Shown piece after piece: positions 31,999 through 47,067 of a stretch of DNA of 64,000 nt. The position numbers were made by a program, and so were the translations under genes. The stretch is from Miltoncostaea oceani. Its GTDB lineage: Bacteria; Actinomycetota; Thermoleophilia; Miltoncostaeales; Miltoncostaeaceae. Below the pieces are notes generated by a model, which was given only the letters and a program-made list of their open reading frames with translations, searched no databases and was not told the origin of the DNA. How positions within the stretch are numbered: the first letter of the stretch is position 1; each line of letters opens with the position of its first letter. The DNA lies in contig NZ_CP064356.1 in assembly GCF_018141545.1 (NCBI RefSeq), positions 248,001 through 312,000 of the forward strand, read 5' to 3'.

Positions 31999-34509
31999 TC
32001 AGCTCCGCACGTAGGGGATGCCGACCGCGGCGGGCGGCTTCGGACGGCCGATGATGCCGGCGACGGCGATCAGCGTCAGCACGTAGGGGAGCGCCTCGAA
32101 GAGGATCGCGAGGGAGTCGGAGTAGACCGGCAGCCGCTGCGCGATGGCGCTGGACGCGCCGAACAGGAGGCAGGCGAGGAACAGGCCCTTCGGGCGCCAG
32201 TTGCCGAAGATCAGCGCGGCGAGGGCGATGAACCCGGAACCCGCGGTCATGTTCTCGCTGAAGGAGTTCACGAACCCGATCGACAGGAAGGCGCCGCCGA
32301 GCGCCGCGAGGACGCCGGACAGGAGCACCGCCGTGTACCGGATCCCGTAGACCGACAGGCCGACCGTCTCGGCCGCGCGGGGGTGCTCGCCGACCGACCG
32401 CAGGCGCAGCCCGAACGGCGTCCGGAAGAGGACGTAGTACGAGACGGGCACCATGATCAGCGCGACCCAGATCAGCAGGTTCATGGTCCCGAAGGCGCGG
32501 CCGAAGAACGGGACGTCGTCGAGGAACGCGAGGTGGACGTCCGGGATCTGGGGGATGCCGCCGGGGGTGCCCTCCGGCCCGTAGATGTCGACGAACAGGT
32601 ACCCCGTCAGGCCGACCGCCAGGAACCAGATGGCGGTGCCGCTCAGGATCTGGTCGGCGCGGAAGTGGATGGAGGCGACGGCGTGGATGCCCGCCAGCAC
32701 CGCGCCGGCGATGACCGCGAGGATCACCCCGGCGACCCACGATCCGAACTTGTCGGCGCCGAGGATCCCGAAGAACGCGCCGACGAGGAGCATCCCCTCG
32801 AGGCCGATGTTGACGACGCCGCTGCGCTCCGAGAAGAGGCCGCCGAGCGCCGCGAAGATCAGCGGTGTGGCGAAGCGGAGCATCGACGCCGTCAGCGCCG
32901 ACCACACGAAGACCGACTCCAGGTTGGAGACGCTCGACTGGGTCGCCATCACGCCGAGGGTGCCGCCGATCAGGGCGAGGCCGATCCCGATCCCGCCCAT
33001 CCGCCGCGGGCCGCGCCACGCCGTCCACCCCGCGAGGGCGAGGGCGATCAGGCCGATGACGATCGGCACGGCCGGCTGGCGCACCGTGAACGGCGGCACG
33101 GCGACCACGAACGCCACGACGGCGAGGAAGATCCCCGCGAGCCCGATCGCGCGCTCGGCGGTCGGCACCCGGTCGCGCGCCCACGCGCCGAGGCGCGCGG
33201 ACAGGGGCGGCGCGGCGGGCAGCTCGATCTCGGTGGCCTGCAGGGCCGCCACCCGGGCGGTCGCCGGCATCCTGCCGCGCCGGCGGAACGTGGGCATCCG
33301 CAGGTTCGGTATCGGCCGTCCGCGGCGGTTCCAGAGCCAGAGGATCAGGACGTCCAGGCCGATGAACAGCAGCACCAGCGCCTGGATCATCGTCGTCAGG
33401 TTGCCGGCGAGCTGCGGCGCGAAGACCTCGGGGTCGAGGCTCCGGGTGGAGGTGCCGTACAGCAGGGCGCCGAACAGGAGCGACGCGAAGGCCGTCCCGA
33501 TCGCGGTGTTGCGGCCGAGCAGGGCGCAGGCGATGCCGATGAAGCCGATGTCCGAGAACTGCACGTCGAGCGTTCCGAGGCGGTACTGCCAGCCGAGGAT
33601 GTCCATCGCGCCGCCGAGCCCCGCGAACGCGCCGCTGATGGCCATGGCGAGGAAGTAGCTGCGGCCGACGCTGATGCCGCCGTAGCGGGCGGCCTCGGGG
33701 TTGCGCCCGACGGCGCGGACGCGGAAGCCGAGGGTGGTGCGGTTGAGGATCGCCCAGTAGGCGACGAGCGCGAAGATCGCGAGGACGATCCCGAGGTGCA
33801 GGCCCTGCAGGAGCTCGTCGCCCCAGATGACGGGGAGCTTCGCGTCGTCGACGATGTCGTTCGAGATCGGGACGCTCGGGTTGACGTCGTTCTGCAGCGG
33901 GCCGCCGATGCCGAACAGGTACGACCCGACCCAGTAGGCGACCCAGTTGAGCATGATCGTGGTGATCACCTCGTGGGCGCCGACGGTGGCCTTCAGGATC
34001 CCGGCGATGCCCGCCCACAGGGCCCCGGCGAGGGCGGCGAGCACCATCGCCAGGACGATGTGCGCCGGCCCCGCGAGGCCCGCCCACGACGACCCGACCC
34101 ACACCGACACCACCGCGCCGACGGTCCACTGGCCCTGGCCGCCGATGTTGAAGAGCCCGCAGCGGAACGCGAAGGCCACCGCGAGCGACGTGAAGATCAG
34201 CGTCGTCGTGATGATCAGCGTCTGCTGCAGGTTGAACGCGGCGGCCTCGCGCTCGATGCCCTGCACCCACGGGAAGAACCAGTTGAGGCCGGTCCCGTTG
34301 AAGATCCCCTTGTAGGTCGTCAGCGGGTTGTGGCCCGTCGCGGCGACGACGACGCCGCCGATCAGGAACGCGAGGACCGTCGTCGCGATCGCGGTGAGCA
34401 CGCCCCCGGCGCGCGGCGCGAGCAGCCCGTAGAGGCCGCCGCGGTCGCCGGGCTCCGGCGGGGGGAGCTGCTGCGGCGGCGGCAGCGGCGGCGGGGCGGT
34501 GGTGCTCAC
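31999..34509 (-). CDS. Fused nucleoside ABC-transporter permease (two permeases in one chain)
   Basis: 836 residues, more than twice a normal BMP-type permease. Residues about 35-370 match the NupP/YufP type: GLFNIGGQGQWTVGAVVSVW and TVGAHEVITTIMLNWVAYWV. Residues about 440-836 match the NupQ/YufQ type: LFSERSGVVNIGLEGMLLVG, HFRADQILSGTAIWFLAVGL and LRSVGEHPRAAETVGLSVYG. A basic linker with PNLRMPTFRRRGR and extra hydrophobic helices joins them. In most bacteria the two are separate genes. A Pro-rich segment precedes the first helix. It is coupled by GTGA to the ATPase gene. The two halves should form the heterodimer-like channel in one polypeptide. Confidence 0.88.
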   Translation of the reverse strand: MSTTAPPPLPPPQQLPPPEPGDRGGLYGLLAPRAGGVLTAIATTVLAFLIGGVVVAATGHNPLTTYKGIFNGTGLNWFFPWVQGIEREAAAFNLQQTLIITTTLIFTSLAVAFAFRCGLFNIGGQGQWTVGAVVSVWVGSSWAGLAGPAHIVLAMVLAALAGALWAGIAGILKATVGAHEVITTIMLNWVAYWVGSYLFGIGGPLQNDVNPSVPISNDIVDDAKLPVIWGDELLQGLHLGIVLAIFALVAYWAILNRTTLGFRVRAVGRNPEAARYGGISVGRSYFLAMAISGAFAGLGGAMDILGWQYRLGTLDVQFSDIGFIGIACALLGRNTAIGTAFASLLFGALLYGTSTRSLDPEVFAPQLAGNLTTMIQALVLLFIGLDVLILWLWNRRGRPIPNLRMPTFRRRGRMPATARVAALQATEIELPAAPPLSARLGAWARDRVPTAERAIGLAGIFLAVVAFVVAVPPFTVRQPAVPIVIGLIALALAGWTAWRGPRRMGGIGIGLALIGGTLGVMATQSSVSNLESVFVWSALTASMLRFATPLIFAALGGLFSERSGVVNIGLEGMLLVGAFFGILGADKFGSWVAGVILAVIAGAVLAGIHAVASIHFRADQILSGTAIWFLAVGLTGYLFVDIYGPEGTPGGIPQIPDVHLAFLDDVPFFGRAFGTMNLLIWVALIMVPVSYYVLFRTPFGLRLRSVGEHPRAAETVGLSVYGIRYTAVLLSGVLAALGGAFLSIGFVNSFSENMTAGSGFIALAALIFGNWRPKGLFLACLLFGASSAIAQRLPVYSDSLAILFEALPYVLTLIAVAGIIGRPKPPAAVGIPYVRS

Positions 34510-36077
34510 GACGGCATCGGCGTCCGGCCGCCGAGCATCGCGCCGCCGAGCGTCTCGCGGTCCACGCCGGGCGCGAACTCGGCGACGATACGGCCCTCGT
34601 AGATCACGAGGATCCGGTCGGCGAGCGACAGGACCTCCTCGAGCTCCAGCGAGACGAGCAGGATGGCGCGACCCTCGTCGCGCTCGGCGACGAGGCGTTT
34701 GTGGACGTACTCGATGGCGCCGACGTCGAGGCCGCGGGTCGGCTGCGAGGCGACGAGCACGGCGGGGTCGCGGGAGACCTCGCGGGCGATGATCACCTTC
34801 TGCTGGTTGCCGCCCGACAGGGACGTGGCGTGCGCCTTGACGCCGCCGCCGCGCACGTCGAACTCGGTGAGGAGCGGCGCGGCCTCCTGCTCCATGCGGC
34901 GCGGGAACAGCCAGCCGTGGCGCGACGACGGCGGCTTGTCGAAGTCGTGCAGCGCCATGTTCTCGGCGAGGGTGAAGTCCATGACCAGGCCGCGGTGCTG
35001 GCGGTCGGTCGGGATGTGCCCGACACCCGCCTCGAGCACGGCGTGCGGCGTGGCGCCGGTGATGTCGCGGCCGTCGGCGGTCACCGTCCCCGACGTCGGC
35101 GCCCGCAGGCCGGTGATCGCGTCGATCAGCTCCGCCTGGCCGTTGCCGTCGACGCCGGCGATGCCGACGATCTCGCCGGCCCGGACGTCGAGGGACAGGC
35201 CGCGCACCGCCTCGAGGCCGCGGTCGTCGTGGACCACCAGGTCGCGCACCTGGAGGCGGGCCTGCGCCGGCGCCGACGGGGCCTTCTCGATGGAGAGCAC
35301 GACGTCGCGGCCGACCATGAAGCGCGCGAGGCTCTGCTCGGTCGCGCCGGCCGTCGCCTCCGTCGCGATGTACTTCCCGCGCCGCAGGACCGTGACGCGG
35401 TCCGCGATGTCGAGGACCTCGTTGAGCTTGTGGGTGATGAAGATGACCGACGTGCCCTGGGCGGTGAGGCTGCGCAGGATGCCCACCAGCTCGGTGGCCT
35501 CCTGCGGCGTCAGCACCGCCGTCGGCTCGTCGAGGATCAGGATGTCGGCGCCGCGGTAGAGCGCCTTCAGGATCTCGACCCGCTGCTGCATCCCGACGGT
35601 GATGTCCTGCACCAGCGCGTCGGGGATGACGGCCAGGCCGAACCGGTCGGAGATGGCCTTCACCCGGCCCTCGGCCTGCGGGGTGTCGAGCAGGGGGCCG
35701 CGGTGCGGCTCGACGGCGAGCACGATGTTCTCGGCGACGCTCATGACCGGGACCAGCATGAAGTGCTGGTGGACCATGCCGATGCCGAGGGCGATCGCGT
35801 CGCTCGGGGAGCGGATCGCGACGACCTCGCCCCGCACCCGGATCTCGCCCTCGTCCGGGGTGGTGAGGCCGAACAGGATGTTCATCAGGGTGGACTTGCC
35901 CGCCCCGTTCTCGCCGAGCAGGGCGTGGACCTCGCCCCGCCTCAGGTCGAACGAGACGTCGTCGGACGCGACGACCCCCGGGTACCTCTTGGTGATGTGG
36001 CGCAGTTCCAGCACCGTCTCCCCCGGCGCGCGTGGCGCCGGGGGAGCGTGCGGGGCGATGGGCCGGTCCACGGCCAC
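34506..36077 (-). CDS. Nucleoside ABC transporter, double ATPase
   Basis: 523 residues with two ABC domains. The first has Walker A LLGENGAGKSTLMN, a shortened signature region (QDITVGMQQRVEILKALYRG) and Walker B ILILDEPTAVLTPQE. The second has GIAGVDGNGQAELIDAITGL, in which the P-loop lacks the usual Lys, the signature LSGGNQQKVIIAREV, and a Walker B VLVASQPTRGLD. This asymmetry is normal for RbsA/NupO-type pairs, where one site is weak. It energises the fused permease and works with the BMP lipoprotein encoded just upstream. GTG start at 36077, with GGAGA before it. Confidence 0.9.
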   Translation of the reverse strand: MAVDRPIAPHAPPAPRAPGETVLELRHITKRYPGVVASDDVSFDLRRGEVHALLGENGAGKSTLMNILFGLTTPDEGEIRVRGEVVAIRSPSDAIALGIGMVHQHFMLVPVMSVAENIVLAVEPHRGPLLDTPQAEGRVKAISDRFGLAVIPDALVQDITVGMQQRVEILKALYRGADILILDEPTAVLTPQEATELVGILRSLTAQGTSVIFITHKLNEVLDIADRVTVLRRGKYIATEATAGATEQSLARFMVGRDVVLSIEKAPSAPAQARLQVRDLVVHDDRGLEAVRGLSLDVRAGEIVGIAGVDGNGQAELIDAITGLRAPTSGTVTADGRDITGATPHAVLEAGVGHIPTDRQHRGLVMDFTLAENMALHDFDKPPSSRHGWLFPRRMEQEAAPLLTEFDVRGGGVKAHATSLSGGNQQKVIIAREVSRDPAVLVASQPTRGLDVGAIEYVHKRLVAERDEGRAILLVSLELEEVLSLADRILVIYEGRIVAEFAPGVDRETLGGAMLGGRTPMPS

Positions 36078-36098
36078 GGTGGGCGGCCCGGTCTCCGG

Positions 36099-37151
36099 CT
36101 AGAGCTCGTCCGGGACCGTGACCTCGCCGTCGATGATCTGCTGCTTGAGCGCGTCGAGCTCGTCGAGCAGCTCCTGCGGCACCTCGTCGCTGGTGGTGCC
36201 GAGGGCGACGCCGTCGTTGGCGAGGTTGAACGTCGCGTCCTCGCCACCCTTGAAGGTCCCGTCCTGGACGGCCTGGATCGTGTCGAACACCGAGGTGTCG
36301 ACCCGCTTCACGGCGCTGGTCAGGATGTGCGGGCCGAGGTCGGACTGGTCGCGATCGACGCCGACGCCCCAGACACCCTCGTCCTCGGCCGCCCACAGGG
36401 CGCCGAGGCCGCAGCCGCCGGCCACCTGGAAGACGACCTGCGAGCCCTTCGAGATCTGGTCGAGGGCGCGCTCCTTGCACTTCGCCTGGGCGACGAAGTC
36501 CTGGGAGTAGTCGATCAGGACCTTCGTGTCCGGGTTCGCGGCGAGCGCACCGGCCTTGTAGCCCGCGATGAAGATCGTGACGGTCGGGATCTCGAGACCG
36601 CCGACCGCGCTGATGACGGGGGCCTTGCCCGGCGTCTTCAGCTCGGCCATCTTGGCCGCGAGGTAGCCCACGAGGTAGCTGTTCTCGTTGGTGGCGAAGG
36701 TGAGGCCGCGGACGTTCGGCGGCGTGCCCTTCAGGTCGGCGTTCGGGAAGTCCACGATCGCGAAGTTGCTCTCGGGGAACTGCGTCGCGACGGTGCTGAC
36801 CGCATCCGCCATCAGGAAGCCGACGCCGACGGTCAGGTCGTAGTCGTCGCGCGCGAGCGTCGCGAGGTTCGCGATGTAGTCGCCGGCCGCCGCGGACTCG
36901 ATCGGACGACCCTCGACGCCCAGCTCCGACTGCGCCCGCTCCAGGCCCTCGAGGGCCGACTGGTTGAACGAACGGTCGTTGAACTTGCCGACGTCGCTGA
37001 CGAGGCCGGCCTTGATGTCCGACGTCGGCGTCGACGTCGTCTCACCGGCCCCCGACCCCGAATCGTCGTCGTCTCCGCAGGCGACCACCATGCCGAGCGC
37101 CGCCACGACGGCGACCACCCCGGCGAGGACCCTCCAGCGTCGTGCTCTCAT
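36099..37151 (-). CDS. BMP-family nucleoside-binding lipoprotein
   Basis: 350 residues. The signal peptide ends in a lipobox, GMVVAC, with the lipid-carrying Cys near residue 25, followed by an acidic linker GDDDDSGSG. The mature part has KAGLVSDVGKFNDRSFNQSA, typical of BMP/PnrA/NupN binding proteins, then EVFQVAGGCGLGALWAAED-like binding-site residues and GVGVDRDQSDLGPHILTSAV. It should bind nucleosides outside the membrane and hand them to the permease. ATG 37151 has AAGGAG 5 nt before it. It is the first gene of the transporter operon. Confidence 0.92.
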   Translation of the reverse strand: MRARRWRVLAGVVAVVAALGMVVACGDDDDSGSGAGETTSTPTSDIKAGLVSDVGKFNDRSFNQSALEGLERAQSELGVEGRPIESAAAGDYIANLATLARDDYDLTVGVGFLMADAVSTVATQFPESNFAIVDFPNADLKGTPPNVRGLTFATNENSYLVGYLAAKMAELKTPGKAPVISAVGGLEIPTVTIFIAGYKAGALAANPDTKVLIDYSQDFVAQAKCKERALDQISKGSQVVFQVAGGCGLGALWAAEDEGVWGVGVDRDQSDLGPHILTSAVKRVDTSVFDTIQAVQDGTFKGGEDATFNLANDGVALGTTSDEVPQELLDELDALKQQIIDGEVTVPDEL

Positions 37152-37210
37152 CGCCACTCCTTGATCGCCCGCGCGCCTTGTACGTGCGGAGCCATGTCCC
37201 GTAGCGCGCT

Positions 37211-37216
37211 TTTATA
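37211..37216 (-). promoter_or_regulatory. Probable -10 box of the nucleoside transporter operon
   Basis: TATAAA on the minus strand about 60 nt before the BMP gene. Unlike most promoters here it leaves a leader with a ribosome site. The leader contains GCGCGC copies that could pair. I find no purine-riboswitch core in it. Confidence 0.4.
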
Positions 37217-37269
37217 CAGCCTCGGGGGCGGCGGCGATACGGCCCCCGCGACACGGCGTGACAGGCGGG

Positions 37270-38553
37270 TCAGCGCGCCGCGATGCGCTCCCGCACGCGC
37301 GGCCCCGGCGTGGGGGCGACGGCGCCGATGCGGACGGCCCCGGCGAAGGCCTCGGCGCCGGCCGCCATGTGCGCCGCGTCGTCCGCGTGGAGTTCCGCGA
37401 GAACCTGACCCCGGGACACGGTGTCGCCCGGGGCGACCCGCAGCACGACGCCGGCGCCGGCGCTCACGGGGTCCTCCTTGCGCGCGCGGCCGGCGCCGAG
37501 CCGCCACGCGGCGACCCCGACCGGCATCGCGGCGACCGCCGCGACGACGCCGTCCGCGTCGGCCCGGACCTCCTCGACGAGCGGCGCCACCGGGAGGGGC
37601 GCATCGGGGTCGCCGCCCTGCGCCCGGACCATCCGCCGCCACCGGTCCATGGCCCGGCCGTCGGCGAGGGCCGCCGCCGGGTCGGCGTCGATGCCGGCGA
37701 GGGCGAGCATCTCGCCCGCCAGCGCGAGGGTCACCTCGACGACGTCCGGCGGGCCGCCGCCCTCCAGCACCTCGAGCGACTCCCGCACCTCGAGGGCGTT
37801 GCCGGCGGTGAGGCCGAGGGGCGCGTCCATGCCGGTGATGAGGGCCGTCGTGCGGACGCCGTTGGCCTCGCCGATGCCCACCATCGTGCGGGCGAGCGTC
37901 CGCGCGTCGTCGAGGTCGCGCATGAACGCGCCCTCCCCCGTCTTGACGTCCAGCACGAGGGCGTCGGTGCCCTCCGCGATCTTCTTGGACATGATCGAGC
38001 TCGCGATCAGCGGGATCGACTCGACGGTGCCGGTCACGTCCCGGAGGGCGTAGAGCTTGCGGTCGGCGGGCGCCAGGTCGCCGCTCGCCGCGCAGATGGC
38101 GGCGCCGATCTCGGCGAGCTGCCCGACGAACTCCTCGTTGGTGAGGGCCGTGCGGAAACCGGCGATCGACTCGAGCTTGTCGAGGGTGCCGCCGGTGTGG
38201 CCGAGGCCACGGCCGGAGAGCTGCGGGACGGCGGCGCCGCAGGCGGCGACGAGCGGGCAGAGGGGCAGGGAGATCTTGTCGCCGACCCCGCCGGTCGAGT
38301 GCTTGTCGACCGTCGGGAAGGGGACGGCGGAGAGGTCGAGGCGCTCGCCGGAGCGGATCATCGCGTCGGTCCAGGTGGCGAGCTCCCGCGGCCCGAGGCC
38401 GTGGTGGAAGATCGCCATCAGCAGCGCCGACGCCTGCTCGTCGGCGACCTCGCCGGCCGTGTACGCGGAGAGGAACCAGTGGATCTGGTCGTCCCGCAGC
38501 TCGTGCCCGTCGCGTTTCGCGCGGATGACGTCGACGGCGGAGTGGGTTCTCAT
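37270..38553 (-). CDS. deoA: Thymidine phosphorylase
   Basis: 427 residues. The family signature is LSGRGLGHTGGTLDKLESIAG, preceded by DKHSTGGVGDKISLPLCPLV, which holds phosphate-binding residues. The active-site Lys is in SSIMSKKIAEGTDALVLDVK. The C-terminal domain includes GVVLRVAPGDTVSRGQVLAE. The enzyme splits thymidine or deoxyuridine with phosphate into base and deoxyribose 1-phosphate. It overlaps cdd by 4 bp (ATGA), so cytidine deamination and phosphorolysis are linked. Distinction from the related pyrimidine-nucleoside phosphorylase Pdp is not certain. Confidence 0.9.
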   Translation of the reverse strand: MRTHSAVDVIRAKRDGHELRDDQIHWFLSAYTAGEVADEQASALLMAIFHHGLGPRELATWTDAMIRSGERLDLSAVPFPTVDKHSTGGVGDKISLPLCPLVAACGAAVPQLSGRGLGHTGGTLDKLESIAGFRTALTNEEFVGQLAEIGAAICAASGDLAPADRKLYALRDVTGTVESIPLIASSIMSKKIAEGTDALVLDVKTGEGAFMRDLDDARTLARTMVGIGEANGVRTTALITGMDAPLGLTAGNALEVRESLEVLEGGGPPDVVEVTLALAGEMLALAGIDADPAAALADGRAMDRWRRMVRAQGGDPDAPLPVAPLVEEVRADADGVVAAVAAMPVGVAAWRLGAGRARKEDPVSAGAGVVLRVAPGDTVSRGQVLAELHADDAAHMAAGAEAFAGAVRIGAVAPTPGPRVRERIAAR

Positions 38554-38951
38554 CGGCCGGATCGCGTCCCGAGGTCGTCGGGGCCGAACGCGCCGGGCAA
38601 CAGGTCGCCGAGCGTGACCGGCCCGTCGTCGCCGTCGAGCAGCAGGCCGGGGCCCCCGTGCTCGAAGAGGAGCTGGCGGCAGCGCCCGCACGGCGCGAGT
38701 GGGCGGCCGTCGCCGGCCACGACCGCGACGGCGACGAGGCGCCCGCCGCCGCTCGCGCGGAGGTCGCTGACGAGCCCGCACTCGGCGCAGAGGCCGAGGC
38801 CGTAGCAGGCGTTCTCGACGTTGCACCCGCGCACGACGCGCCCGTCGTCGGTGAGCCCGGCGGCGCCGACGAGCACCCCCGAGTACGGCGCGTACGCCCG
38901 GTCGGTCATGGCGCGGGCCGCCTCCCGCAAGGCCTCCCAGTCGGGGGTCAC
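38550..38951 (-). CDS. cdd: Cytidine deaminase
   Basis: 133 residues, the homotetrameric type. The zinc motif is CNVENACYGLGLCAECGL, with the expected N-x-E-N and the C-A-E core, and LAPCGRCRQLLFE. AYAPYSGVLVGAA at the start is also typical. It turns cytidine and deoxycytidine into uridine and deoxyuridine. The GTG start overlaps the upstream HAD gene stop and the end overlaps deoA, so the three form one operon. Confidence 0.93.
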   Translation of the reverse strand: MTPDWEALREAARAMTDRAYAPYSGVLVGAAGLTDDGRVVRGCNVENACYGLGLCAECGLVSDLRASGGGRLVAVAVVAGDGRPLAPCGRCRQLLFEHGGPGLLLDGDDGPVTLGDLLPGAFGPDDLGTRSGR

Positions 38952-39655
38952 GTCGCCGTCCCGGACAGCGCCGCCACCGCGGCGGGCGCCTCGCGGATCT
39001 CGCGGACCCGGGCGAGGCGCGGGTGCGACTCGTCGACCTCGGCCCGCTCGAACTCCCAGGTGACGTGGTACGGCACGTGGACCCCGGCGCCGCCCAGCTC
39101 CAGCACCGGGGCGATGTCCGACTTCACGGAGTTGCCGATCATGCAGAACCGCGCGGGCCGCGACCCGAGGCGGGTCAGCACCCGCGCGTAGGTGGCGGGG
39201 TCCTTCTCGGCGACGACCTCGACCGCCTCGAACAGCTCCGCGACGCCGGAGGCGGCGACCTTCGACTCCTGGTGGAAGAGGTCGCCCTTGGTGATGAGCA
39301 CGAGGCGGTGGCCGTCGCCGAGCTCGCCGAGGGCGTCGGCGACCCCGTCGAGCAGCTCGACGGGGTGGCTCATCAGCTCCTTGCCCATCTCGATGATGCG
39401 CTCGATCTGCTCACCGCCGACGCGGTTGCCGGTGAGGGTGAGTGCGGTCTCGATCATCGACAGCGTGAAGCCCTTCACGCCGTACCCGAAGACCGCGAGG
39501 TTGCGCCGCTCCGTCGCGAGGAGGGCCTGGTGGACGTCGTCCCCGTCGACCCACGGCTCCAGCAGCTCGACGTAGCGCTGCTCGGTCACCGCGAAGTGCC
39601 CCTCGCTGTGCCAGAGGGTGTCGTCCGCGTCGACGCCGATGACCTCGATGCCCAT
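38948..39655 (-). CDS. HAD-family phosphatase, possibly a nucleotidase
   Basis: 235 residues with the HAD motifs: [18 protein letters not shown] (D-x-D-x-T); [13 protein letters not shown], the Lys in [36 protein letters not shown]. The helical cap is of the YjjG/pyrimidine-nucleotidase size. As first gene before cdd and deoA it may remove phosphate from nucleoside monophosphates so that they enter this route; this is inference from context. TACACT lies 7 nt before the ATG, so the message is probably leaderless. It is divergent from add. Confidence 0.82.
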
Positions 39656-39662
39656 GGGCCTC

Positions 39663-39668
39663 AGTGTA
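39663..39668 (-). promoter_or_regulatory. Probable -10 box of the HAD-cdd-deoA operon
   Basis: TACACT on the minus strand, 7 nt before the ATG of the HAD gene; no ribosome site is present. Confidence 0.5.
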
Positions 39669-39701
39669 GGGGCGCCGATGGCCCGCGCCCGCGCCGTGGC
39701 G

Positions 39702-39707
39702 TACCGT
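39702..39707 (+). promoter_or_regulatory. Probable -10 box of add
   Basis: TACCGT, 6 nt before the ATG of the adenosine deaminase gene. It is back to back with the HAD-operon promoter, 33 bp away. Confidence 0.45.
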
Positions 39708-39713
39708 TGGCGC

Positions 39714-40787
39714 ATGGACATCGACCCCCAGAACGTGATCCGCGCCCCGAAGGTGCTCCTCCACGACCACCTCGACGGCGGGGTCCGCCCCCAGACGATC
39801 GTCGACCTGGCGCGCGAGGGCGGCTACGACGGGCTGCCGACGACCAACGCGGAGGAGCTGCGGCAGGTCATCTCCCGCGGCGCGAACCGCAACGACCTCG
39901 TCCTCTACCTCGAGACGTTCGCCCACACCGTCGCGGTGATGCAGACCCGCGAGGCGCTGGAGCGCGTCGCGGTGGAGTGCGCGGAGGACCTCGTCGCCGA
40001 CGGCGTCGTCTACGCGGAGATCCGCTTCGCCCCGGAGCTGCACATCGAGAAGGGCCTCAGCCTTGACGAGGTCGTCGAGGCGGTGCTCGCCGGGTTCGCG
40101 CGCGGCACGGAGGGGACGGGGCTCACCGTCCGCGTGCTGTGCTCGGCGATGCGCCAGCAGGCGAGCTCCCTGGAGATCGCGGAGCTGGCGTTGCGCCACC
40201 GCGACCACGGCGTCTGCGGGTTCGACATCGCCGGTCCCGAGGCGGGGCACCCGCCGTCGCGGCACCTCGACGCGTTCTCGCGGGTGATGCGTGACGACTT
40301 CCACATCACGATCCACGCGGGCGAGGCGTTCGGGCTGCCGTCGATCGCGGAGGCCCTGCACGTCTGCGGGGCGGAGCGCCTCGGGCACGGGGTGCGGATC
40401 ATCGACGACATCCACCCCGACGGCGAGGGCGGGTTCACGATGGGGCGCCTCGCGTCGTTCGTGCGCGACCGCCGCGTGCCGCTGGAGCTGTGCCCGACGT
40501 CGAACGTCCACGTCGGCGCGGCCCCCTCGATCGCGGAGCACCCGATCGGGCTGCTGACGCGCCTGCGGTTCCGCGTCACGGTGAACACGGACAACCGGCT
40601 GATGAGCGACACGTCGCTGAGCCGGGAGTTCCTGCAGCTCGCCGCGACGTTCGGCTGGGACCTCGACGACATGCGGTGGGCGACGATCAACGCGATGAAG
40701 AGCGCGTTCCTGCCGTTCGACGAGCGCCTCCACCTGATCAACCGCGTCATCAAGCCGGGCTATTCGATGCTGGGCGCCGACGGCTGA
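39714..40787 (+). CDS. add: Adenosine deaminase
   Basis: 357 residues. Zinc and active-site motifs: [14 protein letters not shown] (H-x-H, with D replaced as usual by HLDG), [14 protein letters not shown] (His and Glu), [14 protein letters not shown] and [17 protein letters not shown] (Asp pair). The protein turns adenosine and deoxyadenosine into inosine and deoxyinosine. With PNP and xanthine dehydrogenase from the same island this leads adenosine to urate. It is monocistronic, followed by a GC-rich hairpin at 40795-40816. Confidence 0.92.
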
Positions 40788-40794
40788 CGCGGGA

Positions 40795-40816
40795 CGCCCC
40801 CACCGCCGGGGGGGCG
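40795..40816. terminator. GC-rich hairpin after add
   Basis: CGCCCCC (40795-40801) pairs with GGGGGCG (40810-40816). It separates the converging add and LOG genes. No T-run. Confidence 0.5.
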
Positions 40817-40839
40817 CGGGGTCCGGGGGGTCCGGGTGG

Positions 40840-41436
40840 TCAGACGGCGGGGGGCCCGCCGTCCATCCACTTGTCGAGCGCGAGCGGCTCCCACGCCGCG
40901 AGGGCGTCGAGGAGCGCGGCGGGTTCGCGTTCGGAGAGGAGCATGTCGCGGTGCTCGGGACGCACGAACCGGGCGTCGCGGGCGGCGTCGAGCATGGTGG
41001 TGAGCGGCGCCCAGTAGCCGGCGACGTCGAGCAGCCCGACGGGTTTGCGGTGGATGCCGAGCTGCGTCCACGTGAGGGCCTCGACGAGCTCCTCGATGGT
41101 CCCGACGCCGCCGGGCAACGCCGCGAACGCGTCGGAGCGCTCCGCCATCAGGAACTTCCGCTCGTGCATCGAGTCGACGACGACGAGCTCGGTGAGGTCG
41201 ATCTTCGAGATCTCCCGGGCGTGCAGCGCCGCGGGGATGATCCCGGTGACGGGCGCCCCGGCGGCGAGGGCGGCGTCGGCGGCGATCCCCATCAACCCGA
41301 CGCTGCCGCCGCCGTAGACCATCCCCATCCCACGCCGGCCGATCTCCGTCCCGAGCGCCGCCGCCGCCGCGGCGTACGCGGGGTCGGCTCCGGGGCTGGA
41401 TCCGGCGTAGACGCAGACTGTCCTGAGCTCGGGCAC
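40840..41436 (-). CDS. LOG-family nucleoside monophosphate phosphoribohydrolase
   Basis: 198 residues from GTG 41436, which lies 8 nt after TAGAGT; a longer frame runs into the repeat array and is not credible. Signature motifs: TVCVYAGSSPGADPAYAAAA, MVYGGGSVGLMGIAADAAL, and PGGVGTIEELVEALTWTQLG, where PGGxGTxxE is the catalytic loop; MHERKF also fits. LOG proteins cut N-glycosidic bonds of adenine-type nucleotides to base and ribose 5-phosphate. In this island it would salvage or degrade nucleotides directly. The cytokinin-activating name of plant relatives need not apply. Confidence 0.88.
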   Translation of the reverse strand: MPELRTVCVYAGSSPGADPAYAAAAAALGTEIGRRGMGMVYGGGSVGLMGIAADAALAAGAPVTGIIPAALHAREISKIDLTELVVVDSMHERKFLMAERSDAFAALPGGVGTIEELVEALTWTQLGIHRKPVGLLDVAGYWAPLTTMLDAARDARFVRPEHRDMLLSEREPAALLDALAAWEPLALDKWMDGGPPAV

Positions 41437-41444
41437 GGCCGCGC

Positions 41445-41450
41445 ACTCTA
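41445..41450 (-). promoter_or_regulatory. Probable -10 box of the LOG gene
   Basis: TAGAGT on the minus strand, 8 nt before GTG 41436. It fixes the start and shows that the repeat array just upstream is outside the gene. Confidence 0.45.
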
Positions 41451-41459
41451 GGGGGACGA

Positions 41460-41945
41460 ACCCCTCGGGGACGGCCGGCGACGTCGTCGGTCCATTTGGC
41501 CACGCACCGAGGTCCACTTGGACGTGACGGCGAGGTCCACTTGGCCGACGCACCGAGGTTCATTTGGACGTGGCGTCGTGGTCCATTTGGCCGGACGGGA
41601 GCGTGCGGTCCTGATCGTGTCCCCGAGGGGTCGGGCGCGGGACGAACCCCTCGGGGAAGGCCGGCTGACCTGGTCGTCCACTTGGCCGCCGCTCCGAGGT
41701 TCATTTGGCCGGAGCGCGATGGTCCACTTGGCCGACGCACCGAGGTCCACTCGGCCGAGCGCCATGGTCCACTTGGACGTGACGGCGAGGTCCACTTGGA
41801 CGGACGGCGAGCGTGAGCCCAGATCGTCCCTGAGGGGTTGAGCGTGAAAGAACCCTCACGGCGCCCGGCCCACGAGGTGGTCCACTCGGCCGGACCGCAG
41901 CGCCCATTCGGACCTCGCGCCGAGGTCCAATTGGACCAAGGACGA
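41460..41945. repeat. Array of a palindromic motif every 22-23 bp, in three bracketed blocks
   Basis: Fourteen copies of a core like GGTCCA(C/T)TTGG(C/A)C start at 41489, 41511, 41534, 41557, 41580; 41675, 41698, 41721, 41744, 41766, 41789; 41879, 41901 and 41924. The best copy, GGTCCAATTGGACC at 41924, is a perfect palindrome. Steps inside a block are 22 or 23 bp, and spacers alternate between CGACGCACCGA-like and CGTGACGGCGA-like sequences. Block 1 is bracketed by a perfect 12-bp inverted repeat (41460-41471 and 41620-41631), block 2 by nearly the same arms (41646-41657 and 41827-41838). The period is not a multiple of 3, so the array is not coding. The whole gap 41437-41989 holds no gene. 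Confidence 0.85.
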
Positions 41946-41989
41946 GCGCAACGGACGAAGCGGGAGCCGGGCGACGTCGGGCCCGGCGG

Positions 41990-42892
41990 TCACCCCGGGG
42001 TGGGCCGCGCCCCCGGGATCGTGACGACGCTCGCCGCCATCCGGCACGCCGTCGCCAGGGCGGCCTCCGGGTCGGCGCCGGTGCGGCGGGCGGCGAGCCA
42101 GCCGGCGGCGAACGCGTCGCCCGCCCCCGTCGTGTCCACCACCGGGCCGGGGGGCTCGGCGGAGGGGACCCGCGCCTCGCCGCCCGCCGCGTCGCGCCAC
42201 ATCGCGCCGTCGCGGCCGAGCTTCAGCACCACCTCGCGGTGCCCTGCCAGCAGGCTGTCGGACACGACCCGCGGGTCGCGGGACCCGCACAGCACCTCCG
42301 CCTCGTCGAGGGTCGCGAGGACCACGTCGACGCCCCGCACCAGCGCCCGGAACGTCGCCCCGCCGACCTCCGCGAGCGGCGCCGCCGACGCCGGGTCGAC
42401 CGACGTCGTCACCCCCGCGTCGTGGGCGCGCTCCAGCGCCGCCACCGCCGCATCCCGGGTCGACGCCCGCAGCAGGGCGTACCCCGAGACGTGCAGGTGC
42501 CCGCCGGCCGACAACAGGTCCCACGGCACCGCCGACACCCCGAGCAGGGCGTTCGCCCCCGCGTCGGGCAGCATCGTCCGCTCACCACCCGCATCGACCA
42601 GCACCACGCACGCCCCCGTCGCGGCGCCCGGCGCCACCGTCAGCCGCGCATCCACCCCCGACGACTCCAGGGCACGGGCCGCCTCGCGCCCCGCCGCGTC
42701 GTCGCCGACGCACCCCACGAACACCACCGGCACCCCGAGGCCGCCGAGCCACGCGGCCGTGTTCGCCGCGGACCCCCCGGGGCGCATCACGATCTCCGCG
42801 GGGGTGTCGCTCGCCGGCGCCAGCGGCCGGTCGGTGCGCGCCACGACGTCCGTCATGACGTCGCCCACCACCACCACCGGGGGTGGGCTCAC
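41990..42892 (-). CDS. psuK: PfkB-family sugar kinase, probable pseudouridine kinase
   Basis: 300 residues of the ribokinase fold. The N-terminal signature is [20 protein letters not shown] and the C-terminal one [20 protein letters not shown], with the catalytic Asp in G-A-G-D. It starts from a GTG that overlaps the stop of a pseudouridine-5'-phosphate glycosidase gene, the usual partner of PsuK. The pair would phosphorylate pseudouridine and split it to uracil and ribose 5-phosphate. General ribokinase-type activity cannot be excluded from the sequence; the neighbour makes pseudouridine most likely. Confidence 0.82.
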
Positions 42893-43788
42893 CCCGCCAT
42901 CGCGGCGGCGATGCGCGCCGCCAGCCCCGCGTTGCGGAGCACCAGCGCCACGTTCACGCGCAGGCTCTCGCCCCCCGTCTCCGCATGGAACCGCCCGAGG
43001 ATGAACGGCGTCGCGTCCTTCCCCCCGATCCCCTCCGCCGCCGCCGCCGCCAGCGCGTCCGCGAGGACGCGGTCGTGCAGGGCGGGGTCCATCTGCTCGG
43101 CGACGGGGAGCGGGTTCGCCACCACCACCGCCTGCGGCAGGCCCAGCACCCGACGGGCGGCGTGGATGCGCGCCACCTCGCCGGGGTCGTCGACCCGCCA
43201 CGGCACCGGATGCCCCGAGTCCGCGAGGTAGAAGCCCGCGAGGTGGTCGGTGCCGTACCCGAGCACCGGGACCGAGAGGGTCTCGAGGCGCTCCAGGGTC
43301 GCGCCGACGTCGAGGATGGACTTCACGCCCGCGCAGACCACCACGACCGGCGCCCCCGCCAGGGCCGTCAGGTCCGCCGACTCGTCGAACGTCGCCGAGG
43401 CCTCGCGGTGGACCCCGCCCAACCCCCCCGTCGCGAAGGCGCCGATCCCGGCGAGCGCCGCGACGTGGGCGGTGCTCGCCACCGTCGTCGCCCCCGGCAG
43501 GCCCCGCACCAGCGCCGGGGCGAGGTCGCGCACCCCGAGCTTCAACACGTCCCCCCGGGCGGCGACCTCCTCGAGCGCCGCGTCGTCGAGACCGACGCGC
43601 ACCCGGCCGCCGAGCACGGCGATCGTCGCCGGCACCGCGCCCCCGGCCCGCACCGCGCCCTCGATCTCCCGCGCGATCCGCAGGTTGTCCGGCCGCGGGA
43701 GGCCGTGGGCGATGATCGTCGACTCCAGCGCCACCACGGGCCGGCGGTCCGCGAGCGCCGCGGCGACCTCCTCGGTGACCTCCAGCAT
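42889..43788 (-). CDS. psuG: Pseudouridine-5'-phosphate glycosidase
   Basis: 299 residues. Family motifs: [77 protein letters not shown], where the Lys is the catalytic one, and [18 protein letters not shown]. The enzyme opens the C-glycosidic bond of pseudouridine 5'-phosphate. It starts one base into the stop of the short aldehyde dehydrogenase-like gene (TGATG) and is coupled to psuK by GTGA. All five genes from deoC to psuK are arranged as one operon. Confidence 0.95.
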
Positions 43789-44630
43789 CAGATGCGGGCG
43801 GGGTGCCAGACCGTGCGGATCTCGCAGAACGCCGTCGCCGTCGCGATGTCCTCCCGGCCACCCGTGCGGGGCGTGCGCTTCAGGTTCGCCGCGGCCCGCT
43901 CCTCCAGGCCCTCCACCATGTCCGCGGGGGCGCCGCTCAGGTCGATCAGGTCGACGTCCTCGTGGTCGGCGAGCCACGGCAGGAGCTGGGCGTGGTCGCC
44001 CGTCAGCAGGTTCACGACGCCCCCCGGCACGTCGGAGGTCGCGACCACCTCGCCGAGGGTGCTGGTCACGAGCGCCGCCGGGCCCCCGGCCACCGCGACC
44101 GCGGCGTTGCCCGCCGCGAGCGCCGGCAGCACCAGCCCGAGGACGCCGCGGACGCCGCCGTCGTCGGGGCACGCCAGCGCGCAGACACCGAGCGGCACCG
44201 GGTTCGACAGGTTCAGGTACGGCCCGGACACCGGGTTCACCCCGCCGACGAGCTGGTCGAGCTTGTCCGCGAACCCCGCCCAGTAGACGGCCGCGTCGAT
44301 CGCCCCCTCCACGTCGTCCCGCGCCGCCGCCTCCGTCACGCCGACGGCCTCGAGCTCGGCCCGCAGCTGGGCGGCGCGCCCCTCCAGCACCTCCGCCACG
44401 CGGTAGATGATCTGGGCGCGGTTGTAGGCGGTGCGCCCCGCCCACCCCGCCTGGGCGCCCCGTGCGGCGCGCACGGCGTCGCGGGCGTCCTTGCGCGACG
44501 CCTGCGCCACGTGGGCGAGCAGGCGCCCGTCGGCGCCGGTGACGGGGAAGGTGCGCCCCGACTCGGAGCGCGGGAACGCCCCCCCGATGAAGAGCTTGTA
44601 GGTCTTGCGGACCTCGACGCGGTCGCTCAC
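43788..44630 (-). CDS. Short aldehyde dehydrogenase-like protein without catalytic cysteine
   Basis: 280 residues, a little over half of a normal aldehyde dehydrogenase. It opens [20 protein letters not shown], as usual, and has the Rossmann-like part with [40 protein letters not shown] and [20 protein letters not shown]. The typical Lys (K-P-x-E) and catalytic E-L-G-G/Cys part are absent, so it cannot be an active dehydrogenase alone. It overlaps the full aldehyde dehydrogenase gene by 4 bp. Together the two make about 778 residues, near the length of ALDH16-type proteins, which carry a second non-catalytic ALDH-like domain. A stable complex is likely. Confidence 0.75.
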
Positions 44631-46123
44631 GCGGGCACCGGCTCCAGGGCGAGGTACTCGGCGAGGCCCTGGCGGCCCCCCTCGCGGCCGAAGCCCGACT
44701 CGCGGACGCCGCCGAACGGGCTCGCCGGGTCGAACTGGTTGAAGCAGTTCGCCCAGACCACGCCCGCGCGGAGCCGCTGCGACACCCACAGGATGCGCGA
44801 GCCCTTCTCCGTCCACACACCCGCCGACAGGCCGTACCGGGTGGCGTTCGCCTTCGCGACGGCCTCCGCCTCGGTGCGGAACGTCTCGACGGTGAGCACG
44901 GGGCCGAACACCTCCTCGCGCACGATCGGGTCGGACGCCCCGGCGCCGCTGACGATCGTCGGCGGGAAGAAGAAGCCCCGCTCCGGCAGCGGGCGGCTCG
45001 GCTGGTCGATGCGGCAGCCCCGCTCGGCGGCCCCGTCGACGTAGCCGCGGATGATCTCGAGCTGGGCGAGCGAGTTGATCGCGCCGACGTCGGTGTTCTT
45101 GTCGAGCGGGTCGCCGGTGCGGAGCAGCTCGATGCGGCGGAGGAGGCGGTCCATCAGCTCGTCCGCGACGCCCTCCTGCACCAGCAGGCGCGAGCCGGCG
45201 CAGCAGACGTGGCCCTGGTTGAAGAAGATGCCGTCCACGATGCCCTCGACGGCCTGGTCGAGCGCGGCGTCGTCGAACACCAGGTGGGCGCCCTTGCCCC
45301 CCAGCTCCAGGGTCAGGCGGGTCCCGGTGCCCGCGAGGGCGCGGCGGATCGCCTTGCCCACCTCGGTGGAGCCGGTGAACGCGACCTTGTCGACGCCGGG
45401 GTGCGACGCCAGCGCCGCGCCGGTCGCGCCCGCCCCCGTCACGACGTTGACGACGCCGGGCGGGATCTCGGCCTCGCGGACGAGCTCGGCGAGCAGCAGG
45501 GCCGTCAGCGGCGTCGTCTCGGCGGGCTTCAGCACCACCGTGTTGCCGCACGCCAGCGCCGGCGCGATCTTCCAGGCGGCCATCAGCAGGGGGAAGTTCC
45601 AGGGGATGATCTGCCCGACGACCCCGAGCGGGCGTGCCCGCATCCCCGGGACGGCGTACGCGAGCTTGTCGGCCCACCCGGCGTGGTGGAAGAGGTGCGC
45701 CGCGGCGAGGGGGACGTCGACGTCGCGCGACTCGCGGATCGGCTTGCCGCCGTCGATCGACTCGAGCACCGCCAGCTCGCGGCTGCGGTCCTGCACGAGT
45801 CGGGCGAGGCGGAACAGGTACTTCGCGCGCGTGCGGCCCGGCATGTCGCGCCAGCCGCCCTCGTAGGCGCGCCGGGCCGCGGCGACGGCGTCGTCGACGT
45901 CGGCGGCGGACGCCTCGGCCACCTCGGCCAGCGTGTCGCCGGTCGCGGGCTCGACCGTCGGGAACACGACCCCGTCGCGTCCCGGCCGCTCCTCGCCGTC
46001 GATCACCAGCCCGTACCGCGGGCGGATCGTGACGATGTCGCGCCCCTCGATGGAGGGGACGTAATCGGCGAGGGTGCGCGCCAGCTCGGACGCGGCGGCG
46101 TCCTGACGGGGGGTCGTGGTCAT
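44627..46123 (-). CDS. Aldehyde dehydrogenase of the deoC operon
   Basis: 498 residues with the full catalytic set: Asn in [20 protein letters not shown], Lys in [19 protein letters not shown], Glu in [20 protein letters not shown], Cys in [19 protein letters not shown], and [20 protein letters not shown]. The gene starts one base into the deoC stop (TGATG). DeoC releases acetaldehyde, so acetaldehyde oxidation to acetate is the obvious job; no CoA-binding evidence is visible. It is coupled to the short non-catalytic homologue after it. Confidence 0.88.
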
Positions 46124-47067
46124 CAGTCCACCGGGAGGTCGCCGGTCCGCGCGTAGCGGCCGGAGCGCGCGAAGCGCAGCTGCAGGACGATGTCGTTCAG
46201 GAGGGTCGAGGCGCCGAACCGGAAGCGGTCGGGCGTGAGGGCGTCGGCGCCGAGGGTCTCGGCGACGAGGGCCAGGTAGCCGAGGGCCTGCTTCGAGGTG
46301 CGGATGCCGCCGGCGAGCTTCAGGCCCACCTCCCGGCCGGTGGCGTCCCGGAACTCGCGGATCGCCTCGGCCATGCACAGCGCGACGGCGGGGGTCGCCG
46401 ACACGGGCAGCTTGCCCGTCGAGGTCTTGATGACGTCGCTGCCGGCGGCCATCGCGATCATGGAGGCGAGCCGGACCATCTCGTAGGAGCCGAGCTCGCC
46501 GGTCTCGAGGATCGTCTTCAGGTGGGCACCGCCGCAGGCCTCCTTCGCGGCGGCGACCTCGTCGTGCACCACGTCGATGCGCCCCGACAGCAGCGCGCCG
46601 CGGTTGATGACGATGTCGATCTCGTCGGCGCCGTCCGCGACCGCGCCGCGGATCTCGTCGAGGCGGTCGGCGAGGGGGCTCTGCCCGGAGGGGAACGCCC
46701 CCGCCACCGACGCGACGTGCACGGGCGAGCCGGCGACGTGCGCCCGGGCGGTCGCGACCATCGACGGGTAGACGCAGACGGCCGCGACGGGCGGCACCGA
46801 CCCGTCGTCGGGGTCGGGGCGCAGTGCCCGGGCGCACAGGGCGCGCACCTTGCCGGGCGTGTCGGCGCCCTCGAGGGTGGTGAGGTCGATGCAGCGCACC
46901 GCCAGCTCCAGCCCGGCGCGCTTGCTCTCGCGCTTGATCGACCGGCCCGTCAGGCGGGACGCGCGGGCCTCGAGGGCCAGGGCGTCGACCGCCGTCACCC
47001 GCAGGGGGGCGTCGAGCAGGGCGCCGTCGATGACGGCGCCGCGTGCGTCACGTCGGAGGGTCGTCAC
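46123..47067 (-). CDS. deoC: Deoxyribose-phosphate aldolase
   Basis: 314 residues, longer than the 220-260 common in bacteria because of an N-terminal extension of about 45 residues. Catalytic motifs: VAAVCVYPSMVATARAHV, GADEIDIVINRGALLSG, HLKTILETGELG with a proton-relay Lys, and DVIKTSTGKLPVSAT with the Schiff-base Lys, then KLAGGIRTSKQALGYLALV. It splits deoxyribose 5-phosphate into glyceraldehyde 3-phosphate and acetaldehyde. It is first in the deoC-aldh-aldh-psuG-psuK operon and lies 31 bp after the phosphomutase gene. Confidence 0.93.
   Translation of the reverse strand: MTTLRRDARGAVIDGALLDAPLRVTAVDALALEARASRLTGRSIKRESKRAGLELAVRCIDLTTLEGADTPGKVRALCARALRPDPDDGSVPPVAAVCVYPSMVATARAHVAGSPVHVASVAGAFPSGQSPLADRLDEIRGAVADGADEIDIVINRGALLSGRIDVVHDEVAAAKEACGGAHLKTILETGELGSYEMVRLASMIAMAAGSDVIKTSTGKLPVSATPAVALCMAEAIREFRDATGREVGLKLAGGIRTSKQALGYLALVAETLGADALTPDRFRFGASTLLNDIVLQLRFARSGRYARTGDLPVD

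What the first reader, a model, noticed from the sequence alone, without database searches (positions are those of the whole stretch)
41460..41945. Non-coding array of palindromic boxes at a 22-23 bp step, in blocks closed by inverted repeats
Fourteen copies of a GGTCCA-N-TTGGACC-like dyad occur in groups of five, six and three, always 22 or 23 bp apart (about two helical turns), so all boxes of a group lie on the same face of the helix. Two alternating spacers repeat as well. Blocks 1 and 2 are each enclosed by a 12-bp inverted repeat (ACCCCTCGGGGA and TCCCCGAGGGGT). The third block is more decayed. The layout suggests cooperative binding of a dimeric protein or a mobile or duplicated regulatory array. 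It is not like a CRISPR, an IS or a known iteron set that I can name.
Basis: seen in the sequence. Interest (0 to 1): 0.78.

Follow-up and report, generated by a model that had tools for sequence, protein, structure and literature searches.

The report
Genus-specific phased palindrome arrays between genes
The finding is one of about 30 chromosomal arrays of a 14-bp palindrome repeated every 23 bp, seen in one bacterial genus and usually lying between the ends of two facing genes; it looks like an undescribed relative of E. coli REP/BIME repeats that an unknown protein probably binds.

Summary
In detail: 14 boxes (5+6+3) at 22-23 bp steps, with a 12-bp inverted repeat closing blocks 1 and 2. 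It is one locus of a dispersed family. The host chromosome carries about 30 arrays (~300 boxes); all four sampled genomes of its genus carry them, and essentially none of about 750 other Actinomycetota do. The unit is 23 bp and oriented (CGGCCAAGTGGACC + 9-bp spacer). Boxes are conserved (0.81 identity between neighbouring units) over spacers (0.57), yet the 23-bp step is kept in 88-94% of short steps. Arrays prefer gaps between convergent genes (16/30 against 32/400 background gaps), and five lie at orthologous places in a sister species. RNAalifold finds no conserved RNA fold, unit orientation ignores gene direction, and no Y1 (RAYT-type) transposase was found in the genus. Best reading: a REP/BIME-like family of extragenic palindromes, differing in head-to-tail arrays with a fixed phase and no GTAG/CGTC tag, whose boxes are probably bound in register by a dimeric protein. 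No protein was identified; binding, and any role in topology or roadblocking, is inferred.

The parts
41489..41593 (-). Block 1: five 14-bp boxes at 41489, 41511, 41534, 41557, 41580 (steps 22,23,23,23); units point to the - strand
41675..41802 (-). Block 2: six boxes at 41675, 41698, 41721, 41744, 41766, 41789 (steps 23,23,23,22,23)
41879..41937 (-). Block 3: three boxes at 41879, 41901, 41924 (steps 22,23); the last, GGTCCAATTGGACC, is a perfect palindrome
41460..41471 (+). Left arm of 12-bp inverted repeat, block 1 (ACCCCTCGGGGA)
41620..41631 (-). Right arm, block 1 (TCCCCGAGGGGT)
41646..41657 (+). Left arm, block 2 (ACCCCTCGGGGA)
41827..41838 (-). Right arm, block 2 (TCCCTGAGGGGT, one mismatch)
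41453..41479 (+). 27-bp direct repeat opening block 1; the second copy at 41639-41665 (96%) opens block 2, so the blocks are a segmental duplication
41639..41665 (+). Second copy of the 27-bp direct repeat, opening block 2
40840..41436 (-). Flanking gene, LOG-type 'possible lysine decarboxylase' family (PF03641); its 5' end faces the array, 52 bp away
41990..42877 (-). Flanking gene, PfkB-family sugar kinase (PF00294), followed upstream by an Indigoidine_A gene; its 3' end faces the array, 53 bp away

Best explanation
The array is one locus of a genus-restricted, vertically inherited family of short extragenic palindromes that works like REP/BIME elements of other bacteria. The unit is a 14-bp near-dyad (core GNCCRANTGGNC) plus a 9-bp spacer. 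It occurs as doublets and, by tandem duplication, as arrays of up to 25 units, mostly downstream of genes and preferentially between convergent genes. Inferred mechanism: a dimeric DNA-binding protein occupies each box and neighbouring dimers contact one another in the register set by the 23-bp step, so the array forms a compact protein-DNA platform at gene ends, where it could hold supercoils, recruit a topoisomerase or stop readthrough. Shown: motif, step, box-over-spacer conservation, placement, genus restriction, orthologous retention of five arrays. Inferred: existence of the binding protein, cooperativity, and the role at gene ends.
For: About 30 arrays in the host genome. Oriented 23-bp unit from 308 boxes, with long arrays of one orientation. 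Neighbouring-unit identity 0.81 in boxes against 0.57 in spacers, and 87/89 phase-chosen middle units are boxes. Step exactly 23 in 137/156 (G000) and 45/48 (G003) of short steps, although spacers carry about 5.7 substitutions each. Dyad pairs covary weakly but consistently above within-array shuffles. Convergent placement 16/30 against 32/400 background gaps of 60 bp or more, P=2e-9; G003 9/22, P=6e-5. Unit orientation does not follow gene direction and no consensus RNA structure is found, which favours the DNA level. Five arrays at orthologous places in G000 and G003. REPs elsewhere show the same convergent/tandem placement, dimers and occasional intragenic copies (PMC3733652), and BIME-2 arrays bind gyrase (PMC6379681).
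Against: No binding protein was identified, and none is encoded consistently beside the arrays. Covariation within boxes is weak; the commonest box is not a perfect dyad. The defining REP features that were tested (GTAG/CGTC tag, Y1 transposase) are absent. Arrays were found with 23-bp patterns, so part of the step regularity is ascertainment. Arrays exist at only about 30 loci, so they are not a general terminator or topology device. The window array itself has no counterpart where its PfkB neighbour is conserved in G001, so its own conservation is not shown. G003 has some arrays between divergent genes.
Confidence: 0.55

Rival explanations
1. Neutral or selfish repeat: a palindromic minisatellite/miniature element that spread in the genus ancestor, tolerated between convergent genes because no promoter is hit, and kept similar by slippage and template-switch correction of palindromes, with no bound protein.
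For: Tandem and block-level duplications; homogeneous arrays such as L048; preference for convergent gaps is expected from tolerance alone; no functional theme among neighbours; avoidance of the origin-proximal region.
Against: Slippage copies spacers as faithfully as boxes, but spacers diverge 2-3 times more; the same box and step persist at five orthologous places after large divergence.
Confidence: 0.27
2. RNA-level element: arrays are transcribed into 3' ends and act as hairpin terminators or mRNA stabilisers in both directions.
For: Location at 3' ends and between convergent genes; perfect 37-bp palindromic doublets in G001-G003, e.g. L140; block 1 with its inverted repeat folds better than shuffles, z=-3.2.
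Against: RNAalifold gives no consensus structure for 76 doublets; half of the boxes break the outer stem pairs; unit orientation is unrelated to gene direction; no Rfam match; an average doublet pairs only about 10 of 18 positions in G000.
Confidence: 0.13
3. Ends of a transposon or phage (multiple terminal repeats, as in IS21-type elements) or plasmid iterons left in the chromosome.
For: Direct repeats of about 22-23 bp resemble iterons and multiple transposase-binding repeats (general knowledge).
Against: No transposase or replication gene among the flanking genes annotated, nor recognised by eye beside the distant arrays L090 and L092; no similarity in plasmids or phages; about 30 loci, some orthologous between species.
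Confidence: 0.05

Closest known systems
REP / BIME elements (GTAG- and CGTC-tagged families)
   Same: Short palindromes in many copies, extragenic, between convergent or tandem genes, as doublets and clusters, occasionally in genes; species- or genus-specific (PMC3733652, PMC2817692)
   Different: Fixed 23-bp phase, mainly head-to-tail arrays (HT is rare in REPs), 14-bp box, no unpaired tag, no Y1/RAYT transposase found in the genus
E. coli BIME-2 arrays
   Same: Tandem palindromes at gene ends, an analogue for protein binding (gyrase; PMC6379681)
   Different: Alternating REP orientation and longer REPs; gyrase binding is not shown here
Plasmid iterons
   Same: Direct repeats at about two helical turns
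   Different: No replicon or Rep gene seen; dispersed over about 30 chromosomal loci
CRISPR arrays
   Same: Regular repeats with diverged spacers
   Different: 14-bp repeat, 9-bp spacers; no cas gene among the neighbours examined

Membership tests
REP/BIME (RAYT-type) | Short palindromic repeats, high copy, mostly extragenic | tested here: met
   About 300 boxes in about 30 loci, mostly intergenic; two loci lie in coding frames
REP/BIME (RAYT-type) | Preference for convergent/tandem gene gaps | tested here: met
   G000 16 convergent, 12 tandem, 2 divergent; background gaps 32/224/144
REP/BIME (RAYT-type) | Unpaired GTAG or CGTC tag at one end | tested here: not met
   Position weights show no such tag; CGTC in G001/G002 boxes is part of the paired stem
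REP/BIME (RAYT-type) | Cognate Y1 tyrosine transposase (PF01797) in the genome | tested here: not met
   0 of 4 genus genomes; the control search rings in E. coli and 4 others
REP/BIME (RAYT-type) | Alternating orientation or HH/TT dimers with variable 20-100 bp spacers | tested here: not met
   G000 arrays are head-to-tail with a 9-bp spacer; G001-G003 have palindromic doublets, also with a 9-bp spacer
Rfam RNA family | Match to a covariance model | tested here: not met
   No match with E up to 1 in window 40500-43000
IS21-type multiple terminal repeats | IstA/IstB or other transposase between or beside repeat blocks | tested here: not met
   Flanking genes annotated by Pfam are housekeeping or regulatory; none is a transposase. 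Not all flanking genes were annotated.
Plasmid iterons | Adjacent Rep gene and origin | tested here: not met
   Neighbours are LOG-family and PfkB genes here and other ordinary genes elsewhere
Protein-binding site array | Demonstrated specific protein binding | not testable with these tools
   Needs affinity purification or ChIP

The most novel reading that the evidence does not exclude
A bacterial genus carries chromosomal arrays of phased palindromic sites for an undescribed dimeric DNA-binding protein that oligomerises along the array between convergent genes, acting as a transcription roadblock, insulator or topological anchor: a bacterial counterpart of arrayed terminator-protein sites.
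Probability: 0.25. Interest if true: 0.78.

Novelty: new variant of a known kind. Interest (0 to 1): 0.55.

Why it matters
No REP/BIME-like family described in the papers read here combines a fixed 23-bp phase, head-to-tail arrays and absence of a Y1 transposase, and none is from this class of Actinomycetota. Box-over-spacer conservation and orthologous retention make it directly testable whether such extragenic palindromes are maintained as protein-binding platforms at gene ends or are only tolerated.

Tried and rejected
(1) IS21-like or other transposon ends: no transposase beside arrays or, by eye, beside the distant look-alikes L090-L092. (2) Phage or plasmid origin: no DNA similarity; viral pattern hits spread over all allowed spacings, as chance would. 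(3) RAYT-driven REPs: no PF01797. (4) Rfam RNA: none. (5) RNA hairpin family: no consensus fold, weak pair support. (6) A family spread across phyla: distant hits exist (L090 Acidimicrobiia, L092 Proteobacteria, L179 another Thermoleophilia family), but most are plain minisatellites and their rate is near the reversed-pattern control (4 against 2 of 395); the phylum survey found only the genus. (7) Mid-replichore clustering seen first in G003 is not shared by G000; only avoidance of the origin-proximal part is common to both.

Full report
OBSERVATION. The window array is as described: 14 boxes in groups of 5, 6 and 3 with 22-23 bp steps, between a LOG-family gene (40840-41436, -) and a PfkB gene (41990-42877, -). 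Blocks 1 and 2 are enclosed by ACCCCTCGGGGA/TCCCCGAGGGGT and begin with a 27-bp direct repeat (96%), so the blocks are a duplication. The mean step of 22.6 bp is 2.15 turns, so boxes wind around the helix and do not share one face.

A FAMILY, NOT A SINGLE LOCUS. The host genome G000 (4.54 Mb, 3 contigs) has about 30 such arrays, all on contig 1 between 0.10 and 2.88 Mb; none was found on contigs 2 and 3 (P about 0.002 if placement were even). A weight matrix from 308 boxes gives an oriented 23-bp unit, CGGCCAAGTGGACC + TCGGGGTCG-like spacer, and nearly all units of a long array point the same way. Half-sites alternate between GGTCCA and CGGCCA; a minority arm type GCGCCA..TGGCGC occurs in G002 and G003. 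Every one of the four sampled genus genomes has arrays. With 2 mismatches allowed none of 115 other genomes of the family and class has one; with a looser core, 4 of 395 class genomes against 2 for the control; and in the 394 other genomes of the phylum sample, none. The samples overlap; together they cover about 750 other genomes. An exact scan of 85,000 species named genus members Ga0077541 and SupBloom_Metag_038 (a Thermoleophilia MAG); the few hits elsewhere are minisatellites or isolated pairs.

CONSTRAINT. To avoid choosing boxes by their sequence, I took pairs of boxes 46 bp apart and looked at the middle unit by phase alone: 87 of 89 are boxes (background 1.1%). Identity between neighbouring units is 0.81 in the box core and 0.57 in the spacer, homogeneous arrays left out. 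Of the short steps (20-26 bp in G000; 23-25 bp seen in G003) 137/156 and 45/48 are exactly 23 although each spacer has accumulated about 5.7 substitutions. The arrays were discovered with 23-bp patterns, which inflates this figure for doublets, less so for long arrays. Dyad partners covary modestly above within-array shuffles (z 2-3 at most variable pairs).

PLACEMENT. Sixteen of 30 arrays in G000 lie between convergent genes, 12 between tandem genes, 2 in a nominally divergent gap (both over 1.8 kb and probably holding missed genes); background gaps of at least 60 bp are 32/224/144 (P=2e-9). G003 shows 9/8/5. Neighbouring genes share no theme. Unit orientation does not follow gene direction where the two neighbours are in tandem.

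AGE. Reciprocal best hits show five G003 arrays at the same place as G000 arrays: L137/L057, L161/L056, L139/L055, and two inside coding frames, L135/L166 (a gene with a weak FliK-like match) and L162/L044. Flanking proteins are mostly 65-90% identical. The window array is not shared: its PfkB orthologue in G001 has no array and G003 lacks a close PfkB orthologue.

DNA OR RNA. RNAalifold predicts no consensus structure for 76 aligned doublets, outer stem pairs are broken in about half of the boxes, and Rfam is silent. The simplest doublets in G001-G003 are, however, near-perfect 37-bp palindromes, so hairpins are possible for some copies.

MECHANISM. The evidence fits a DNA-level element whose boxes are recognised by a dimer and whose step matters, placed where convergent transcription piles up. 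A role in topology or in stopping readthrough is by analogy with BIME-2, which binds gyrase in E. coli (PMC6379681), and with the placement of REPs (PMC3733652). I could not identify the protein. The neutral alternative remains serious because tolerance alone explains placement; the differential decay of spacers and the orthologous retention speak against it but do not exclude palindrome-correcting mutation.

COMPARISON. It works like a REP/BIME family but fails the tested membership marks of RAYT-type REPs: no GTAG/CGTC tag, no PF01797 protein in four genomes, head-to-tail fixed-phase arrays. I therefore call it a new variant of a known kind and not a REP family member.

Noticed in passing
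L166:4385-5935 (G000) and L135:5324-6853 (G003): A box doublet sits within the coding region of orthologous genes with a weak FliK (Flg_hook, below cut-off) match, so the element can be read through as protein.
   Followed up: partly
L044:5296-6135 and L162:5986-6142: Array elements lie inside a proline/alanine-rich open frame next to a conserved gene cluster; no Pfam family for the 803-aa frame.
   Followed up: partly
G000 contig 2 (815,643 bp): Lower G+C in sampled stretches (0.69-0.71 against about 0.75), no arrays, and a weak second DnaA-domain hit at 788558; may be a secondary replicon.
   Followed up: no
L185 (G003 1.672 Mb) and L183 (G002): A second box type, GCGCCA..TGGCGC, with the same 23-bp step, missed by the main profile; more such arrays may exist.
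   Followed up: partly
L179 (G216, another family of the class): Four boxes GCGCCACTTGGCGC at 23-bp steps with unlike spacers just after a stop codon: the best look-alike outside the genus.
   Followed up: partly
L161 (G003 1.086 Mb) and L163:6050-6300 (2.633 Mb): The array region appears as a near-identical duplicate at two places of the G003 chromosome.
   Followed up: no
window 31999-47067: Gene run that looks like nucleoside salvage: BMP-type transporter, thymidine phosphorylase, cytidine deaminase, adenosine deaminase, PfkB plus Indigoidine_A (likely pseudouridine kinase/glycosidase), DeoC-like; names other than the Pfam-tested ones are by eye.
   Followed up: no
G000 and G003 chromosomes: Arrays avoid the origin-proximal region: 2 of 30 within 700 kb of dnaA in G000, 0 of 24 within 500 kb in G003; contig 1 of G000 is assumed circular.
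   Followed up: partly
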